Positions 5,692 through 63,308 of a stretch of 64,000 nt of DNA are shown piece by piece. The notes beneath the pieces were generated by a model. The model was not told where the DNA came from. It was given only the letters and a program-made list of their open reading frames with translations, and did no database searches. How positions within the stretch are numbered: the stretch's first letter is position 1; the number at the start of each line of letters is the position of its first letter. Location of the stretch: assembly GCF_000026045.1 (NCBI RefSeq), contig NC_007427.1, positions 1 to 64,000 on the forward strand. Reading direction: 5' to 3'. Origin of the DNA: Natronomonas pharaonis DSM 2160 (GTDB taxonomy: Archaea; Halobacteriota; Halobacteria; Halobacteriales; Haloarculaceae). The position numbers were made by a program, and so were the translations under genes.

Positions 5692-6021
5692 TCAGTCGGA
5701 GTCCTGTGCGTTCAGCTCCTTGAGGAACCAGCTGGCTGCCGTCCCGATCCGAACGCCATCGACGTTGCGCATCTCAAGGCCGTTCGTGGCGGTCCGAAAC
5801 GGCTCGTCGTCGACGAGGATACGGTGGATGACTGTGCGGACGGGATCGGTCCCGTAGGTATCAATAACGGTCGCCATCGTCCTGTCGAAATGCGCATCCT
5901 CGTGATCGGTTCGTGGGGCTTGGGCCCGGTGGATCACGAGGTCGACCACATCGTCGACCGATGCGTGGTCGGGATCTCCGGTTTGCTCACGAACGTCATA
6001 GGAAGGCTCTGTATCCGGCAT
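5692..6021 (-). CDS. Hypothetical acidic protein, partner of a winged-helix gene
   Basis: The protein has 109 residues and is strongly acidic at its N-terminus, with a C-terminal segment VDGVRIGTAASWFLKEL. No family is recognised. It lies 63 bases downstream of the winged-helix gene 6085-6444 on the same strand. A related winged-helix gene at 37269 is instead followed by a PemK-type toxin, so this protein could be a different effector linked to the same type of regulator. That link is inference. Confidence 0.55.
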   Translation of the reverse strand: MPDTEPSYDVREQTGDPDHASVDDVVDLVIHRAQAPRTDHEDAHFDRTMATVIDTYGTDPVRTVIHRILVDDEPFRTATNGLEMRNVDGVRIGTAASWFLKELNAQDSD

Positions 6022-54800: not shown

Positions 54801-57290
54801 ATGGGACCACGAGGTACGATACTGGAAAAGTTGGGTCGAAGCACCCTCGTTTCGACCGGCAGTGTTGGCGGAGTAGGTGGTCTGATAGGCAAGTCTACTG
54901 TGTCCGGCAGCCGAGATGACCCAATTACTCTGGCTGTTCTTGAGAACCGGTCAGGAAAATTTGCGGAGCTCGGGACCTCAAAGTGGCAAGCTAGTCGCCT
55001 CGCAGTCGAAGAGCTAAACGAAAGTGGAGGCGCACTCGGCCGTAAAATTGAGTTGATCGACCCGGACCCGGCGTCCGATGTAAAGCGGTACCGGCAACTG
55101 ACCACCGAAATTCTTGAGGAGCGCGACGTAGACGCGATCTGGGCCGGCTATGCCTCTTCCGAGCGGGAAGTCGTTCGTCCGATAACGAATGCTCACAGAC
55201 AGCTTTACTTCTACACGAACCAGTACGAAGGAGGGGTTTGTGACCGATATACGTTCCCTGTCGGAGCGACTGCCCGCCAGCAGCTTGGAGCTGTGCTCCC
55301 GTACCTCGTATCAGAATACGGACCGAAAATTTTCACCATTGCGGCGGACTACAACTTCGGCCATCTGTCCTCTGACTGGGTGGAGATTCTAGCAGCCGAG
55401 AACGACGCCGAGGTAATCGGCACGGAGTTTGTGCCGTTGTCGGAGACGTCTTTCGAGTGGCTGGTAGACAGAATCGAGGCCGCCGACCCCGACTTCGTCA
55501 TGTCGATGCTCGTCGGGGACAACCACGCGGAGTTCTTCCGAGAAAAGGCCACCCGTGACCTCTCGATGCCTATCGGAACGTCAACTGCGATGGCGCAGGC
55601 GTTCGAACACAAGCGATACGAACCGCCAGCCTTCGCCGACGTGTACGCTGGCGTCAACTACATGGAAGAGCTCTCCACGCAGGAGAACACGACCTTCGTC
55701 GAGCGGTTTTACGAGATGTTCCCGGACGCGGACTACATCAACCAAGAAGCACAGAACAACTACGTCTCGATACATCTCTACGCGAAAGCCGTCGAGGCCG
55801 CAGGGACAACCGACCAAGATGCCGTGATAGAACAGCTGGAAAGCGGACTGTCGTTCGATGCCCCGGAAGGGAGAGTGGCCATCGACGGAGCAACACACCA
55901 CATCAACCACACCATGCGAATCGCGAGGGCTGACGAAGACCACAATATCGAATTCTTCAACGAGCAGCGGATAGATGAGACATTTCTCTCGCAGACGGTC
56001 GGATGTGACCTCCGCGAAGTCGCCGAGACAACGCAGTACAGACCGGCACTGTTCCATCAGCAGGGGACATTCGACAGTATGCACGATGCGCTGGAAGATC
56101 GGGTACAAGATGCGCATGAATCAGAGAAATTGCGTGAGCAACTCGAAGCACGCACACAAGCGTACAGCGACGCGATGCGGGCGGCCGCAGAGGGCGACCT
56201 CACGACCCGCATGTCGACGGGCGCCAACAACGAGGCGCTGGCCGTAATCGCCGAGGAATTCAACGAGATGATCGCCGAGATGGAGCGAACACTCGCCGAC
56301 ATAGGTGAGTTCGCGGATGACGTAGCCAGCGCATCCCGGGAAGTCACCACCTCCACAGACGAGGTCAGAGCAACGAGCGAGTCCGTCGCCAGCTCTATCG
56401 ATCAGATATCTGACGGGGCGGCCGACCAAAACGAATCGCTCCAAGTCGTTAACGACGAGATGAGCGACCTCTCGGCGACAATCGAAGAAGTCGCCGCCAC
56501 CACCGACGAGGTCGCCGACGTTGCAGCCAAGACCGCAGCGGCCGGAAGCCACGGTCAAGAGGCCGCAACCGACGCAATAGCCGGCATGAATGAAACGGAG
56601 CAGAAAGCCGAGCAGGCCGTCGACGCTATCCACGAGCTTGAAGCAGAGGTGACAGAAATCGACGCTCTGATCGACCAAATTTCGGAAATCGCCGAGCAGA
56701 CGAATATCTTAGCACTCAACGCCAACATTGAGGCTGCCCGCACCGGCGGCGACGGTGAGAGCAACGGTGATGGGTTCGCCGTGGTCGCAAACGAAGTCAA
56801 GGAGCTCTCTGAGGAAGTAAAGCAGGCCGCCGAGTCGGCCGAAAGTCGCGTCGAGGCGATTCAAGAGCGAACGGACCGCTCGACGACAGCGGTCGAGGCA
56901 ACGAGCGAGCGCATCGCGGGAGCCTCCGAGCAAGTAACCGAAGCAGTCGAAGCGCTGGAAGAAATCGCAGCGTACGCCGACGAGACCAACGATGGTATCC
57001 AAGAAATCTCCAACACGACTGAAGACCAAGCGACATCGACTGAGGAGACAGTCTCGATGATAGACGAGGTGGCGTCGATAAGCGAAGAGACGACAACGGA
57101 AGCAGAGTCGGTGGCCGCAGCAGCAGAAGAACAGTCGGCATCGCTAGCAGAGGTTTCTGCTTCGGCGACAGAACTCTCAGAGCGGGCGGCAGAGCTGTCA
57201 GAGGCGATAAGCCGTTTTGAGGTCGGGGCCGATCTCGACGACGACGCCGTTGACACATCCGGCGCAGCTGAGCCAGGCGTCTCCGACTAG
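54801..57290 (+). CDS. Fused substrate-binding / methyl-accepting transducer
   Basis: The protein has 829 residues. Residues about 40-400 form a type I periplasmic-binding fold of the urea/short-chain-amide class ([50 protein letters not shown]). A HAMP-like stretch follows (about 450-500: [20 protein letters not shown]), then the MCP signalling domain (about 505-800) with hairpin tip [20 protein letters not shown]. No membrane helix is seen between the parts. Only a weakly hydrophobic N-terminal segment ([16 protein letters not shown]) precedes the binding domain, with no lipobox. It should signal to CheA/CheW, but whether ligand is sensed inside or outside is unclear. Convergent pressure from the adjacent phn importer on ligand type is speculation. 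Confidence 0.83.
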
Positions 57291-57395
57291 CGCACAGCGC
57301 CGGTATCGCCGATACCCAGCGGCTGCGATTCTGGGAAACGATTATGCCAACCGTTCGCACAAAATACGTGACAGGGCAAAGAGCGGCCACTTAGC
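57251..57395. repeat. 145-base direct repeat, copy A
   Basis: Identical to 58247-58391 at 143 of 145 positions. Copy A covers the last 13 codons and stop of the transducer gene and its downstream flank. The 851 bases between the copies hold a RelE/RHH pair and a tnpB remnant. Confidence 0.9.
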
Positions 57396-57409: not shown

Positions 57410-57700
57410 TTAGTCGTCGTCGGGGGTGTAGGCCCCTGGACGCTTCTCGATGGTGTAGACCCACAGAATCTGGTCATCCTGGACTGCCTTACAACCGAGA
57501 CGAAACGCACCGATACGGAGCTTCGAATGCGGCGCACCGGTGAGTGGCTCCAGGTAGTCGCTCGGATCACGCCACTGGTCGGTGACAATCTCGTCAAGCT
57601 TCGAGACGATGCGCTCCTGCTCGTGCGGCTGGAGCTTCTCGTACTCACGTTCTGCGGGATCAGTGAGCCTCCAGTCCCATTCGTCATCACTCGCCGGCAT
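57410..57700 (-). CDS. RelE-family toxin
   Basis: The protein has 96 residues. WRLTDPAEREYEKLQPHEQE, LTGAPHSKLRIGAFRLGCKA and ILWVYTIEKRPGAY follow the RelE/ParE fold: the Arg/Lys strands and terminal aromatic strand fit a ribosome-dependent mRNA nuclease. It overlaps the RHH gene by 14 bases. The module is enclosed by the 145-base direct repeats, a sign of recent mobility. Confidence 0.8.
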   Translation of the reverse strand: MPASDDEWDWRLTDPAEREYEKLQPHEQERIVSKLDEIVTDQWRDPSDYLEPLTGAPHSKLRIGAFRLGCKAVQDDQILWVYTIEKRPGAYTPDDD

Positions 57701-57944
57701 CCATGTCCTTGTTCAGACGCGCTCGGATCTCGTCGCTGCTGTAGGTTCGCCCCTCAGCGGTCGCCAGCTGGTGTTCGCTCGCGGCGATGTCCTTCCAACC
57801 CTTCCGCGAGAACGTGGGGTGTTTCACGGCATCACGGAGCGCCCACCGGATAAACTCGCTCCGGGACGGGAAGTCTTCGGCCCGCCAAGTCGCATCAAGG
57901 TCGTCAAGGAACGCCTCCGGAATCTTGAGCGTGATGGTGGTCAT
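57687..57944 (-). CDS. RHH antitoxin of the RelE pair
   Basis: The protein has 85 residues from the ATG at 57942-57944; a longer start 39 bases upstream is possible. MTTITLKIPEAFLDDLDATW and FPSRSEFIRWALRDAVK form a ribbon-helix-helix. The C-terminal acidic tail (YSSDEIRARLNKDMDAGE) would bind the toxin. A TATTACCTCCGTATTACC stretch just upstream contains two TATTACC repeats that may be the operator. Confidence 0.77.
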   Translation of the reverse strand: MTTITLKIPEAFLDDLDATWRAEDFPSRSEFIRWALRDAVKHPTFSRKGWKDIAASEHQLATAEGRTYSSDEIRARLNKDMDAGE

Positions 57945-58021
57945 GTTAGGGTCGTCATTGGCCCCTGCGTCAGCGTCGGACATACATCTGTATTACCTCC
58001 GTATTACCATAAGCATTGTCG

Positions 58022-58246
58022 GTGGGTCGGAGTTCACTTCCTCCCGCACTTGACTCTCGCCTCGCGCCGACGTCCCGTGTCGGTCAACACCCAAACCCGA
58101 ACCGTGAGGTCCGTGAAAGTCGGGACCTCCACCAGCCCCGATGCCGCCCGATAATACACACCGCCGCTTTTCGATCCGCGTGGTCTTGGAATCCACACTG
58201 TCTGCATTTGAACCGTTTCTTCTGACGATTCCCACGCGACGTATGC
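58022..58246 (-). pseudogene. Remnant of a tnpB gene 3' end
   Basis: On the minus strand the first codons read HTSRGNRQKKRFKCRQCGFQ, then DHADRKAAVCIIG: the second half of the TnpB zinc finger and the last RuvC aspartate. It then runs into GC-rich right-end sequence ending CGGGAGGAAGTGAACTCC. The 5' part is missing exactly at the start of direct repeat copy B. The RelE/RHH pair may have travelled next to this element. Confidence 0.65.
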
Positions 58247-58391
58247 TGACACATCCGGCGCAGCTGAGCCAGGCGTCTCCGACTAGCGCACAGCGCCGGT
58301 ATCGCTGATACCCAGCGGCTGCGATTCTGGGAAACGATTATGCCAACTGTTCGCACAAAATACGTGACAGGGCAAAGAGCGGCCACTTAGC
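58247..58391. repeat. 145-base direct repeat, copy B
   Basis: Second copy of 57251-57395 with two base changes. It carries only the last codons of the transducer gene and therefore lies in non-coding context here. Confidence 0.9.
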
Positions 58392-58978: not shown

Positions 58979-59517
58979 CCTGAACATCTGGGGCACCGAC
59001 TGCAGCCGTCGGTGCTGTTCCAGGCTTGATTTGCTACTACTTGTCTTCACCCGTCGAGTGCGTCCAATCGGCTGTACTCATCCTCCGAGAGTGAAATCGA
59101 GGCGGCGGCGACGTTCTCTTCGAGGTGTGCAACGCTCCCGGTCCCCGGGATGGGCAACACCATGTCCGAGTGCTCAAGCAGCCATGCGAGCGCAATCTGG
59201 TAGATTGTGGCGTCGTGTGCGTCGGCGATCGATTCGATAGCGTCGTGTCCGGAGAGCGACCCAGCGGCAATCGGAAAATAAGGCATAAAGCCGATCCCGT
59301 GGTCCTCGCAGGCTTGGAGGACGTCTTCGTGGTCGCGACTCAAGACGTTGTACTGGTTTTGCACTGTTGCAATCTCGACATGGTCTCTGGCCTGCTCGAG
59401 TTGGTCGACGGTGACGTTCGAGAGGCCGATGTGGTCGACAAGCCCCTCGTCTTTGAGCTCTGCGAACGCCGTGACACTGTCTTCGAACGGCGTGTCCGGG
59501 TCAGGGCTGTGTAGTTG

Positions 59518-60887
59518 GTGAACCGCCTCGGGGTCAAGCCCCGAGGCTTCCCGTTTCGATGACGCGACTTGCAGGAACCGACGAAGACCGGCCTCCATCG
59601 GTTTCCACAGCGGTCGCAGTCTCCACGGGCGTGACTTCGGCCTGTCCCAGACCTAACTCCCGAAGACCGCGAGAAAGAACGTTGTACGACGCATTCGCGT
59701 CCCTGTCCGCCTCGAACCCACACGTCGGACATGAGTGTTCCCGCACCCACAACGGCTTCTCCGTCTCGACGCCACACTCGGCGCACTCTTTGGTTGTCCC
59801 CGCAGGGTTCACTTGGACAACGTGCGTGCCGTACAGGTCGCCCTTATACTCCAGCATATTGATGAACCCACGCCACGCAGCGTCCTGCTTATTCCGGGCG
59901 TTCCCCCGCTGTTGAAGCATCCCTGAGACGTTCAAATCCTCCACGAACACGGCGTCATACGTCTTGACCAGCCATGTCGTGAGTTTGTGCTGGAAATCTT
60001 CGACTTTCCGCTTGATTCGACGTTTGACTTTGGCGACCTCCCGGCGTTGTTTCTTCCAGTTGTTGCTCCTATGTTCTTTTCGGGAGAGATTGCGCTGTTC
60101 CCGACGCAGGCGTTCGTACTCGTCGGAGAGGTTAAGCCAGTCCACGCTGTCGCCATCGCTCGTATAGATGTAGTTGGTGATGCCGAGGTCGATGCCGACA
60201 CAATCCTCGGCATCCAAGTCATCCACGTCGGGTTTCTCGGGGAGCGTGGTGTCTTCGACTTCGAGGCCAAACGTGACGTACCACTCGCCAGTCGTTTCTT
60301 TCTTCAGCGTGACTTCTTTGATAGTGGCGTTGTCGGGGATAGGGCGGTGGTAGCGGATGGGGATGTCACCGATTTTCGAAAGCCAGAGCGTGGCAGTCCG
60401 ACCACTCGTGTTTTTGAGTTCGAAGCCGGACTGCGAGTACGTCACACTCTGGTATTCTCGCGGCGGTTTCCACTTGAGCCACCCGACCTTGTGCCCGTTC
60501 TGTTTCTTCTCGGAAAGGTTCGATAGGTTATCGTAGAAGCGTTCGACGGTTTTCTGCAACGCCTTCGAGTGGACTTCCGAGAACACGGACCATTCGTCTT
60601 TCCACTCGGTGAGGCGCTTCTGGTGTTGATACGCCGAACCGATGTTGTCCTCGTCAGTGTCGAGGGCGTTGTATTCGTAGCGGGTGTGGTTGTAGGCTTG
60701 GCGGTGGATGTCGATGTGGCGTTCCGCTTCCGCAGCCACACCTGTTCGGTCAGGATAGGCACAGAAGCGGTAGTCGTACCACATCGCCGTACCGTGATTA
60801 TTGGCATATTTCGACTTAATGGTTTGGTCCACAAGTTGTCGGCTTCATCCACGGGGTCAAGCCCCGTGGCATTCGCCTCGACAGCCT
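59518..60887 (-). mobile_element. tnpB element inserted in the aldo/keto reductase gene
   Basis: On the minus strand the left end starts AGGCTGTCGAGGCGAATGCC at 60887 with hairpin CCACGGGG/CCCCGTGG. The right end has hairpin CCTCGGGG/CCCCGAGG and ends GGTTCAC at 59518. The 5' flank is CTTTAC. No target duplication is made, as expected for IS200/IS605-type transposition. Total 1370 bases. Mini-elements at 8647 and 44546 share its ends. Confidence 0.85.
59534..60784 (-). CDS. tnpB: TnpB RNA-guided nuclease
   Basis: The protein has 416 residues from the ATG at 60782-60784 (MWYDYRFCAYPDRTGVAAEA); an earlier ATG adds 16 residues of unlikely sequence. RuvC residues intact: D in VGIDLGITNYIYTS, E in VFVEDLNVSGML, D in FEADRDANASYNVLS. 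Zinc finger ECAECGVETEKPLW...CPTCGF. It is about 80 percent alike in its C-terminal third to the copy at 49284. The stop is 16 bases from the element's right edge, so the guide RNA must overlap the coding region. The guide would begin CAACTACACAGCCCTGACCC, inside the reductase gene. Confidence 0.87.
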   Translation of the reverse strand: MWYDYRFCAYPDRTGVAAEAERHIDIHRQAYNHTRYEYNALDTDEDNIGSAYQHQKRLTEWKDEWSVFSEVHSKALQKTVERFYDNLSNLSEKKQNGHKVGWLKWKPPREYQSVTYSQSGFELKNTSGRTATLWLSKIGDIPIRYHRPIPDNATIKEVTLKKETTGEWYVTFGLEVEDTTLPEKPDVDDLDAEDCVGIDLGITNYIYTSDGDSVDWLNLSDEYERLRREQRNLSRKEHRSNNWKKQRREVAKVKRRIKRKVEDFQHKLTTWLVKTYDAVFVEDLNVSGMLQQRGNARNKQDAAWRGFINMLEYKGDLYGTHVVQVNPAGTTKECAECGVETEKPLWVREHSCPTCGFEADRDANASYNVLSRGLRELGLGQAEVTPVETATAVETDGGRSSSVPASRVIETGSLGA

Positions 60888-61265
60888 GTAAAGGTCGATC
60901 GAGTCCACGCCGAGACGGTCACGGCTGACAAGCGCCTGATTGCGGATATACTCGGGGGCGGCGTGGTTGAGCCACTCGCCGTTGCTGTTCCGGAGCAGCC
61001 CGGCCTTGGTGGCAATCGTCACAGCGTCCGTATCAATCGCTTCGCCAAGTAGGCGCTCGCTAACGCCCGGGCCGTAGGAGTCGGCAGTATCGATAAAGTC
61101 GACGCCGAGTTCGACGGCTCGCTGGGCGACCGCTTTGGCGGACTGCTCGTCCGCAGGGGGCCCGATGATATCTTCGCCACAGAGGCGCATTGCGCCAAAG
61201 CCCAGTCGGTTCACAGTCATATCGCCGCCGAGGTCGAACGTATCGCTCTCGTTTGTGAGCGTCAC

Positions 61266-61408: not shown

Positions 61409-61579
61409 ATGGGCGAAGGGGATTCAACCAATGTCAATATTGAACTCGAACAGGAGGATTTCGAGTTTCTCAAAGAGTACAAAGATGAAATGGGGTGGAC
61501 GTGGGAAGGACTGCTCAAAGCTGGCACGCCTTTCCGAGAGTGGAAACAACAGCAGTACGCCAATGACAATCCAGAATGA
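61409..61579 (+). CDS. 56-aa protein coupled to a long tnpB
   Basis: ATG 61409 to TGA 61577-61579 encodes 56 residues: STNVNIELEQEDFEFLKEYK, EMGWTWEGLLKAGTPFREW. The shape (beta strand, then two helices) resembles a ribbon-helix-helix repressor, though the match is by eye. Its stop overlaps the tnpB start in ATGA. A strong TATA box precedes it. It may regulate the element or form part of it. Confidence 0.6.
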   Translation: MGEGDSTNVNIELEQEDFEFLKEYKDEMGWTWEGLLKAGTPFREWKQQQYANDNPE

Positions 61580-63308
61580 CACAACTTACCGAACAGTTCC
61601 ACCTGCCAGACGAGTACCACGACGCCTGTGACCGACTAACGGCGCTCGTCCAGAAACACGCACAGCGGTTGCTCGCTGAGGAATACTGGCGTGACGAGCA
61701 TCTTGACGCCATCAGCGACCACTCGGGCCAGTCCTACACCTACATCCGCGCGACGACCACGACGCCTTCGAAGACGCCGAAGAATACGTCTACAGTCGAT
61801 TCAAACGGTGCGTCTACCATCGCGTTACGCACGTTCTCGACGCCCACAGCGACGAATATCACGCCTTCCAGTTCGTGACTGACACGGTTGCCGAGCGCAA
61901 GATTCGACGCATTGGCTGGCACAGACTCCGCCAACGGTTGTTCGACGAGGACTCACCATACATCGAATGGCGCATATTGGAGTCGGTCGTCGACCAACTC
62001 AACAGCTACTACGACACACATGGCCGCTTCCCCGAGGCGTACACAGAGCTAGTCAAGACGCCCCAACCCAACGGCACACTGCCGTTTGCACCGGACAAGG
62101 GCGACTACCACATCCACGAACTGACAGTCGAAGACGGTGAACTCCGCTTCGTGTTGAATGCGCCGGACTCGCTCTCGCCGGAAAGCTACCACGACTGGAC
62201 AAAACACGTACTTCGCTTCTCAACGCATTCCCGGTTTCAGCAGATGCTCGACGCAGGAGTCGTGAAAGCACCGACACTCCACGCTTCCGGCCACGGCTAC
62301 ACGCTTGACGTGCCTGTTGCTGTGCCCGAACAGGACACTGAGACGGTTGCCGACCGCGTGTTAGCGGCCGATCTCGGCGTTAAAAAGCAGGCCACGGCAG
62401 TCGTTCTTGACAGTGGCGACGTGGCACACGAACAGGTGACGCCGCCACAGTTTCTCGACCATCCAGCGAAAGATAAACTGTTTCGGGTGAAAGCCGACGC
62501 CGAAGGCATCAACGACCGGCTTGCAGAACTCCGCAGACAGGGCAAAGCACACACGGAACGGTTTGACCACTTGCTTAGTGAGTACCGCCAGACGCGGCGA
62601 AAAGAACGCCGTCTTCGTGAGCAAATTCAACACGACGTAGCCAACCAGTTGGTGTGGCTCGCTGCCAAGGATGGTTGTGAAACCATCGTGTTCGAGTCAC
62701 TCGGCCAACTTGACGCAGGCGACACAAGTGGAGAAGTCGCGTGGTCGATCTCGTCGTGGGCACGAGGAGAACTACTCGACCACGTCGAGTACAAGGCCGG
62801 GTTGCTCGGAATCGACGTGACGACGGTGAATCCGTGGGGAACGAGTCGGTTCTGCCCCCGGTGTGGTGAGCGTGGAGAGACGGTGAACGCACCGAACGAC
62901 CACACGGAGTGTCGTCACGGTGGACATTTCCACTGCCCGAATTGTGGCTACGAGGGCGACCGTGACGTGGTTGGGGCAGTGAACGTCGGGCGAAAGCACC
63001 TCTCCGACAGCAAGATGGAGACGGCGACCCCTGCTGAGTATATCTCGGCGGGGAAACACGCCAGTTTTTCATCACGCCGCGCGGGGTGTGCCCGTTCTGC
63101 TGGCGTTCAGTCCGCGACCGATGAACAGGATCAGGCGAGCGGTCGTCAGACCCACCTCTCTCAGTTCCGTGCCCGGTCACTCACTGCGAAATCGGGTGAG
63201 AAAGACATGAGTGGACTGCAACCAAATCACGGTGGTAAGACGGGCCTGCGGTGGCCCAGACGTAGTGTGACACAAACTGTCCTCGTCAGTACTACTGATT
63301 GTGGATGA
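61576..63308 (+). pseudogene. tnpB: Long-form TnpB gene with a frameshift
   Basis: ATG 61576 reads EQFHLPDEYHDACDRLTALV up to SDHSGQSYTYIRA. At about 61757 coding sense moves to another frame (DDHDAFEDAEEYVYSRFKRC) and runs to 63308. Together they make a protein of about 576 residues, longer than the 416-426 of the other two. RuvC residues D (LAADLGVKKQATAV), E (IVFESLGQLDAG) and D (YEGDRDVVGAVNVG) and the zinc finger FCPRCGERGE...CPNCGY are intact, with a 110-residue basic C-terminal tail. A one-base error or a programmed shift cannot be distinguished here. A second start at 61875 would give a 477-aa protein lacking the N-terminus. Confidence 0.75.

What the first reader, a model, noticed from the sequence alone, without database searches (positions are those of the whole stretch)
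59047..61265. tnpB element inserted seamlessly in an aldo/keto reductase; removal restores the frame exactly
The element 59518-60887 has 5' flank CTTTAC and ends in TTCAC. The flanking coding parts are 126 and 157 whole codons and join as DLY-QLHSPDPDTP. The predicted guide RNA would read reductase sequence (CAACTACACAGCCCTGACCC) and so would recognise the empty site. This matches the proposed homing role of TnpB, which favours re-establishing the element in emptied alleles.
Basis: partly seen in the sequence, partly recalled or inferred. Interest (0 to 1): 0.75.

Follow-up and report, generated by a model that had tools for sequence, protein, structure and literature searches.

The report
TnpB jumping gene splitting a reductase
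A salt-loving archaeon carries a small RNA-guided jumping gene that has cleanly split a reductase gene; the insertion is real and exact, but it is what this well-known class of element is expected to do.

Summary
A 1370-bp tnpB-only IS200/IS605 (IS1341-type) element lies at 59518-60887 (minus) directly 3' of TTTAC, ends in TTCAC, and splits a 282-residue aldo/keto reductase without adding or losing a base. In 109 of 109 homologues examined the reductase runs gap-free over the junction; in Halohasta salina the halves abut at 6000|6001. A second copy in the genome and relatives fix the ends: 28 copies with both ends resolved follow TTTAC (25) or TTTAT (3). TnpB aligns with ISDra2 TnpB at D191/E278/D361. 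The end of tnpB folds as a conserved RNA with paired changes, so a guide RNA continuing into the reductase is likely. Exact frame restoration follows from transposition without target duplication, and recognition of the empty site is built into every such insertion. Homing was not shown: no RNA data, no empty allele of this gene copy, and 0 of 109 homologues have TTTAC at the site. Side finding: the chromosomal twin has an extra ~54-nt structured cassette in its right-end hairpin loop, resembling published SMR repeats.

The parts
60888..61265 (-). N-terminal 126 codons of the aldo/keto reductase
   Evidence: Pfam PF00248 profile 1-106; gap-free junction in 109 of 109 homologues
59047..59517 (-). 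C-terminal 156 codons plus stop of the same reductase
   Evidence: Pfam PF00248 profile 107-289; abuts the N half exactly in L059
60888..60892 (-). TTTAC target of insertion and predicted TAM
   Evidence: TTTAC in 25 and TTTAT in 3 of 28 copies with both ends resolved
59518..60887 (-). tnpB-only IS200/IS605 (IS1341-type) element, 1370 bp
   Evidence: ends set by own copy L002 and by relatives
60849..60870 (-). left subterminal palindrome (CCACGGGG-CTTGA-CCCCGTGG)
59526..59547 (-). right subterminal palindrome, short form without loop cassette
59534..60784 (-). TnpB coding sequence from the ATG at 60784 (416 aa, start chosen by analogy; frame also open from GTG 60832); stop lies in the right palindrome loop
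   Evidence: NCBIfam NF040570 guided_TnpB 278 bits, cut-off 100; match to ISDra2 TnpB structures over residues 44-395 of the 432-aa frame
59518..59629 (-). predicted guide-RNA scaffold overlapping the 3' end of tnpB
   Evidence: 30 pairs, 8 with changes on both sides, all 30 formed in the window copy; folding z -3.4
59498..59517 (-). predicted guide segment read from the reductase (CAACTACACAGCCCTGACCC)
   Evidence: position after TTCAC; no second near-match with target motif in the own genome

Best explanation
This is an IS1341-type (tnpB-only) IS200/IS605 element that was moved in trans by a Y1 HUH transposase (TnpA) and inserted 3' of TTTAC in an aldo/keto reductase on a 131-kb contig, probably a plasmid, knocking it out. 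No target duplication arises, so flanking codons stay in register. Its TnpB is an apparently intact RNA-guided nuclease. The RNA from the end of tnpB and the right end carries a scaffold followed by reductase sequence as guide, so TnpB would cut a copy of this reductase from which the element is missing (TTTAC + CAACTACACAGC...), and repair from an occupied copy would restore the element. Shown here: the insertion, its ends, the conserved target motif, the aligned catalytic positions and the conserved RNA-like structure. Inferred by homology: TnpA in trans, transcription, cleavage, homing.
For: Exact junction: 109 of 109 homologues gap-free, L059 halves abut. Family: Pfam OrfB_IS605 + Cas12f1-like_TNB; NCBIfam guided_TnpB 278 bits, cut-off 100. 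ISDra2 TnpB in the PDB: E 7e-35 over residues 44-395, with D191, E278 and D361 facing query D215, E298 and D378 of the 432-aa frame (counted by hand on the printed alignment). Ends and target: TTTAC 25 and TTTAT 3 of 28 resolved copies; right flanks of 31 copies all different. RNA: on 24 of the 25 short-form right ends (23 distinct), 97.7% of pair cells form, and 50 cells have both sides changed against 18.6 in shuffles (0 of 500 as high) and at most 4 when slid. Window fold z -3.4. Three Y1 transposase genes exist in the genome, all on the other contig. One of them (L053) has a left palindrome with the same core as this element's right palindrome.
Against: No RNA, cleavage or excision data. 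No empty allele of this same gene copy found: the nearest homologue is 84.8% identical with no shared neighbour genes. The candidate helper at L053 has, by analogy of its end, TCTAC rather than TTTAC, so the mobilising TnpA is unproven. 0 of 109 homologues have TTTAC at the site. No Rfam match at E up to 1, although haloarchaeal sotRNA families are said to be in Rfam (PMC12558985). Two of the covariation measures are weak (pairs with double changes 8 against 6.0, 21 of 500 shuffles as high; pair types 25 against 22.9, 60 of 500). Several double changes mostly follow the split between the window's clade and the rest, so they may be few events.
Confidence: 0.86

Rival explanations
1. The insertion is real, but the element is a stranded passenger: TnpB or its RNA is not expressed or active here, and the element persists by drift, without homing.
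For: tnpB-only copy with no tnpA on its contig; no homing evidence at this locus; the 31 copies compared all have different right flanks; the guide has no second target in the genome.
Against: 432-codon frame open, catalytic positions aligned, all 30 scaffold pairs formed in the window copy, a 99.8% identical second copy suggesting recent movement, and both reductase halves still open.
Confidence: 0.3
2. An intervening sequence that is removed from RNA (IStron, group I or II intron) or from DNA in a programmed way, so that the reductase is still made.
For: Seamless junction with exact frame restoration.
Against: No Rfam match at E up to 1 in 31,585 bases of eight loci including the window locus (that Rfam holds group I and II introns is recalled). 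The element has the ends, target and palindromes of IS200/IS605 copies found at 31 different sites. No recombinase gene was recognised in the element besides tnpB.
Confidence: 0.03
3. The TnpB has been tamed into a nuclease-dead RNA-guided repressor (TldR-like).
For: TnpB-only elements are the source of such factors (recalled).
Against: The three RuvC acidic positions align with those of ISDra2 TnpB; the element moves as a unit with ends.
Confidence: 0.03

Closest known systems
ISDra2 (Deinococcus radiodurans) TnpB / reRNA
   Same: TnpB homologous over residues 44-395 with aligned catalytic positions; insertion 3' of a pentanucleotide (TTGAT there, TTTAC here); RNA from the right end with flank as guide; published homing proposal (PMC8612924, passages seen)
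   Different: ISDra2 carries its own tnpA; here none is linked. The target motif differs. Activity is shown there, not here.
IS1341-type elements of Natronomonas pharaonis (ISNph5-ISNph22) and Haloquadratum
   Same: Palindromes near the ends, no target duplication; in Natronomonas 35 of 38 tnpB unlinked to tnpA and 3 tnpA (PMC3119063, passages seen); this genome also has 3 tnpA
   Different: Whether this copy is one of the catalogued ISNph elements could not be checked; it may already be catalogued.
Halobacterium salinarum sotRNAs / omega RNAs
   Same: Right-end RNA associated with tnpB in haloarchaea, with a right-end hairpin (PMC12558985, section 3.3.3 read, passages)
   Different: No Rfam match for the loci searched here; expression is unknown here.
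SMR-A small mobile repeats of Haloquadratum (for the loop cassette of the twin copy)
   Same: Short transposase-free sequences sitting inside near-terminal palindromes of IS605-type elements and PATEs (PMC3119063, passages)
   Different: About 54 nt here against about 110 bp there; sequences were not compared, since the SMR sequences were not at hand.

Membership tests
IS200/IS605 superfamily, IS1341-type (tnpB only) | Encodes a TnpB-family protein | tested here: met
   NF040570 278 bits with cut-off 100; PF01385 and PF07282
IS200/IS605 superfamily, IS1341-type (tnpB only) | Subterminal palindromes at both ends, no terminal inverted repeats | tested here: met
   Palindromes; no inverted-repeat pair reported in 59400-61000
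IS200/IS605 superfamily, IS1341-type (tnpB only) | Insertion 3' of a fixed short target without target duplication | tested here: met
   TTTAC 25 and TTTAT 3 of 28 resolved copies; zero-base junction
IS200/IS605 superfamily, IS1341-type (tnpB only) | No tnpA inside the element; mobilised in trans | tested here: inconclusive
   No tnpA in it; 3 Y1 genes elsewhere, but the helper is not identified
RNA-guided TnpB nuclease (OMEGA) | RuvC catalytic residues present | tested here: met
   Alignment to 8bf8_A: D191, E278, D361 face D215, E298, D378 (counted by hand; that E278 and D361 are catalytic is recalled)
RNA-guided TnpB nuclease (OMEGA) | Structured RNA from the right end, guide from the flank | tested here: inconclusive
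   Conserved structure with paired changes (with the weak measures told); transcription could not be tested
RNA-guided TnpB nuclease (OMEGA) | Guide-dependent DNA cleavage next to the TAM | not testable with these tools
   Needs an assay
TnpB homing / gene drive at this locus | Re-establishment of the element in emptied alleles | not testable with these tools
   No empty allele of this gene copy found
IStron / self-splicing intron | Intron RNA inside the element | tested here: not met
   No Rfam match at E up to 1
TldR-like nuclease-dead TnpB | Loss of RuvC acidic residues | tested here: not met

The most novel reading that the evidence does not exclude
The right-end hairpin loop is a docking site for an exchangeable RNA cassette (hairpin - TGATGACGAG - hairpin, about 54 nt) that jumps between unrelated TnpB families and tnpB-less mini-elements and is thereby built into their guide RNAs. 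The window copy and its 99.8% identical chromosomal twin would be a natural pair without and with it, and the cassette would retune or parasitise TnpB.
Probability: 0.15. Interest if true: 0.55.

Novelty: new member of a known kind. Interest (0 to 1): 0.27.

Why it matters
It is a clean, well-delimited haloarchaeal example with a known pre-insertion gene, target motif (TTTAC), guide and RNA scaffold, so it is ready for a direct test of TnpB homing in an archaeon, where many genome copies per cell (recalled) should favour such a drive. The twin copy, which differs mainly by a structured cassette in the right-end hairpin, offers a matched pair for asking what that cassette does.

Tried and rejected
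Rejected: intron or IStron (no Rfam match at E up to 1), nuclease-dead repressor, and chance frame restoration. None is near-identical, and records near the window's genome may be left out of those collections. Neighbour genes of the window gave no match in L059-L096 at E 1e-4 (eight queries with the two reductase halves). Open frames through the joined flanks of 28 copies were long in many, but mean little in GC-rich DNA and are not used. A pseudoknot between scaffold and TTCAC was considered by eye and not established. Paper searches for TnpB elements of haloarchaea, this plasmid or the interrupted reductase. No title or abstract start in these listings names the element; apart from passages of PMC3119063 and PMC12558985 the texts were not read. 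ISfinder was not available.

Full report
WHAT IS THERE. The window is G000:C2:1-64000 of a 2.75-Mb genome in three contigs. From recall, the contig sizes 2,595,221 and 130,989 fit the Natronomonas pharaonis chromosome and its plasmid PL131; no call names the organism. On the minus strand the sequence reads ...GACTCGATCGACCTTTAC | AGGCTGTCGAGG ... GGCGGTTCAC | CAACTACACAGCCCTGACCC.... The 1370 bp between the bars hold a TnpB gene; outside them lie the two parts of an aldo/keto reductase, 126 codons and 156 codons plus stop.

THE JUNCTION IS EXACT. Both halves match Pfam Aldo_ket_red and meet in the profile at 106/107. I searched only with the C-terminal half. The 29 loci fetched from relatives (46 of 60 genomes had a match, at most 30 loci were returned, the window's own excluded) and the 80 loci of genome contigs (best 80 of a capped list) carry the N-terminal half in one piece with it: 109 of 109 align gap-free over residues 120-134. 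They are homologues, not proven orthologues; some are bacterial. In Halohasta salina the N half ends at L059:6000 and the C half starts at 6001.

THE ENDS ARE REAL. A second copy lies in the chromosome at C1:1631882 (99.8% identical over 1349 bp, other flanks). Of 392 genomes of the order, 339 have some match to the element, many of them partial. I read 34 loci in detail. 31 have a right end in TTCAC (the pattern used required it; L168, L172 and L176 were dropped for lack of it), all with different right flanks. 28 also have a resolved left end: 25 follow TTTAC, 3 follow TTTAT, these being the own copies L003-L005. L159, L169 and L173 have unresolved left ends.

THE PROTEIN. NCBIfam guided_TnpB 278 bits against a cut-off of 100. 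ISDra2 TnpB (8bf8, 8h1j) matches residues 44-395 at E 7e-35; the best PDB match, at E 4e-43, is an AI-designed nuclease. D191, E278 and D361 of ISDra2 TnpB face D215, E298 and D378 of the 432-aa frame, counted by hand on the printed alignment. By analogy the likely start is the ATG at 60784 (416 aa).

THE GUIDE RNA. On 24 of the 25 short-form right ends (the near-copy L003 left out), RNAalifold gives 30 pairs, 8 with changes on both sides. On 23 distinct rows 97.7% of cells pair, and 50 cells show double changes, against 18.6 (sd 3.8) in shuffles, none of 500 as high, and at most 4 when slid. Two measures are weaker: pairs with double changes 8 against 6.0 (21 of 500 as high) and further pair types 25 against 22.9 (60 of 500). 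Shuffles do not keep relatedness; slid versions do, but favour a structure derived from the same alignment. Several of the double changes mostly follow the split between the window's clade and the rest, so the number of independent events is small. The window copy forms all 30 pairs and folds at z -3.4, none of 200 shuffles as good. Because this stretch also encodes the end of TnpB, I take the paired changes as selection on RNA. The stop codon of tnpB lies in the loop of the last hairpin. No Rfam family matches at E up to 1.

DOES IT HOME? The empty site would be TTTAC + CAACTACACAGCCCTGACCC, so the guide fits it by construction, as in every insertion of this class. In the own genome no other place matches (one unrelated site with 3 mismatches and no TTTAC). 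In Halohasta salina the first 14 guide bases and 18 of 20 agree, but the motif reads TCTAC. In 0 of 109 homologues is it TTTAC, in one TTTAT, and the other best guide matches have 4 mismatches. Homing, if it occurs, is confined to near-identical alleles, such as other copies of this contig. That fits published work: homing was proposed with ISDra2 (PMC8612924, passages), and gene drive among plasmid copies is reported for IS200/605 elements (PMC11870625, abstract and introduction). Three Y1 transposases are encoded, all on the other contig. Published counts for Natronomonas are 38 tnpB and 3 tnpA (PMC3119063, passages).

SIDE FINDING. The chromosomal twin differs at its right end: the hairpin CCTCGGGG-CTTGACCCCGAGG of the window copy holds about 54 extra nt in its loop, predicted to fold as two hairpins around TGATGACGAG, with paired changes among 6 long-form copies. 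On a tree of 34 copies (25 short, 6 long, 3 other) the long form needs at least 4 changes; 23 of 500 shuffles need as few. By a strict pattern the cassette occurs in 24 of 117 genomes of the order, the own included. Of 35 places read (7 of the own genome and 28 fetched, only part of its list), 29 lie in a palindrome by my automatic test and 6 failed it (L181, L197, L201-L204). 9 of the 35 have a TnpB relative within 1.4 kb upstream, 4 of them below 30% identity. In the own genome several are mini-elements. This resembles SMR-A repeats, which insert into such palindromes (PMC3119063).

VERDICT. New member of a known kind; it may even be catalogued in ISfinder.

Noticed in passing
L002 (C1:1631824-1631882) against window 59526-59547: The 99.8% identical chromosomal copy carries an extra ~54-nt two-hairpin cassette in the loop of its right-end palindrome that the window copy lacks; the same cassette sits in palindromes of other TnpB elements and of mini-elements.
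   Followed up: partly
L159 left end: A related cassette appears to sit in the left-end palindrome of this copy, so both ends may carry it.
   Followed up: no
window 57251-57395 and 58247-58391: 145-nt direct repeat, 99% identical, flanking a possible toxin-antitoxin pair (57410-57983 minus: weak ParE match E 0.038 below cut-off, RHH_1 match above cut-off).
   Followed up: partly
window 58087-58386 minus: Possible remnant of another tnpB (partial TNB domain, below the family cut-off).
   Followed up: no
window 61576-63308 plus: A second, different tnpB (TNB domain above cut-off, NF040570 below cut-off) whose N-terminal part may lie in another frame, so possibly a pseudogene.
   Followed up: partly
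L053 (C1:2258670-2258990 minus): Y1 transposase whose left palindrome has the same core sequence as this element's right palindrome but, by analogy, TCTAC before its end: a candidate helper in trans.
   Followed up: partly
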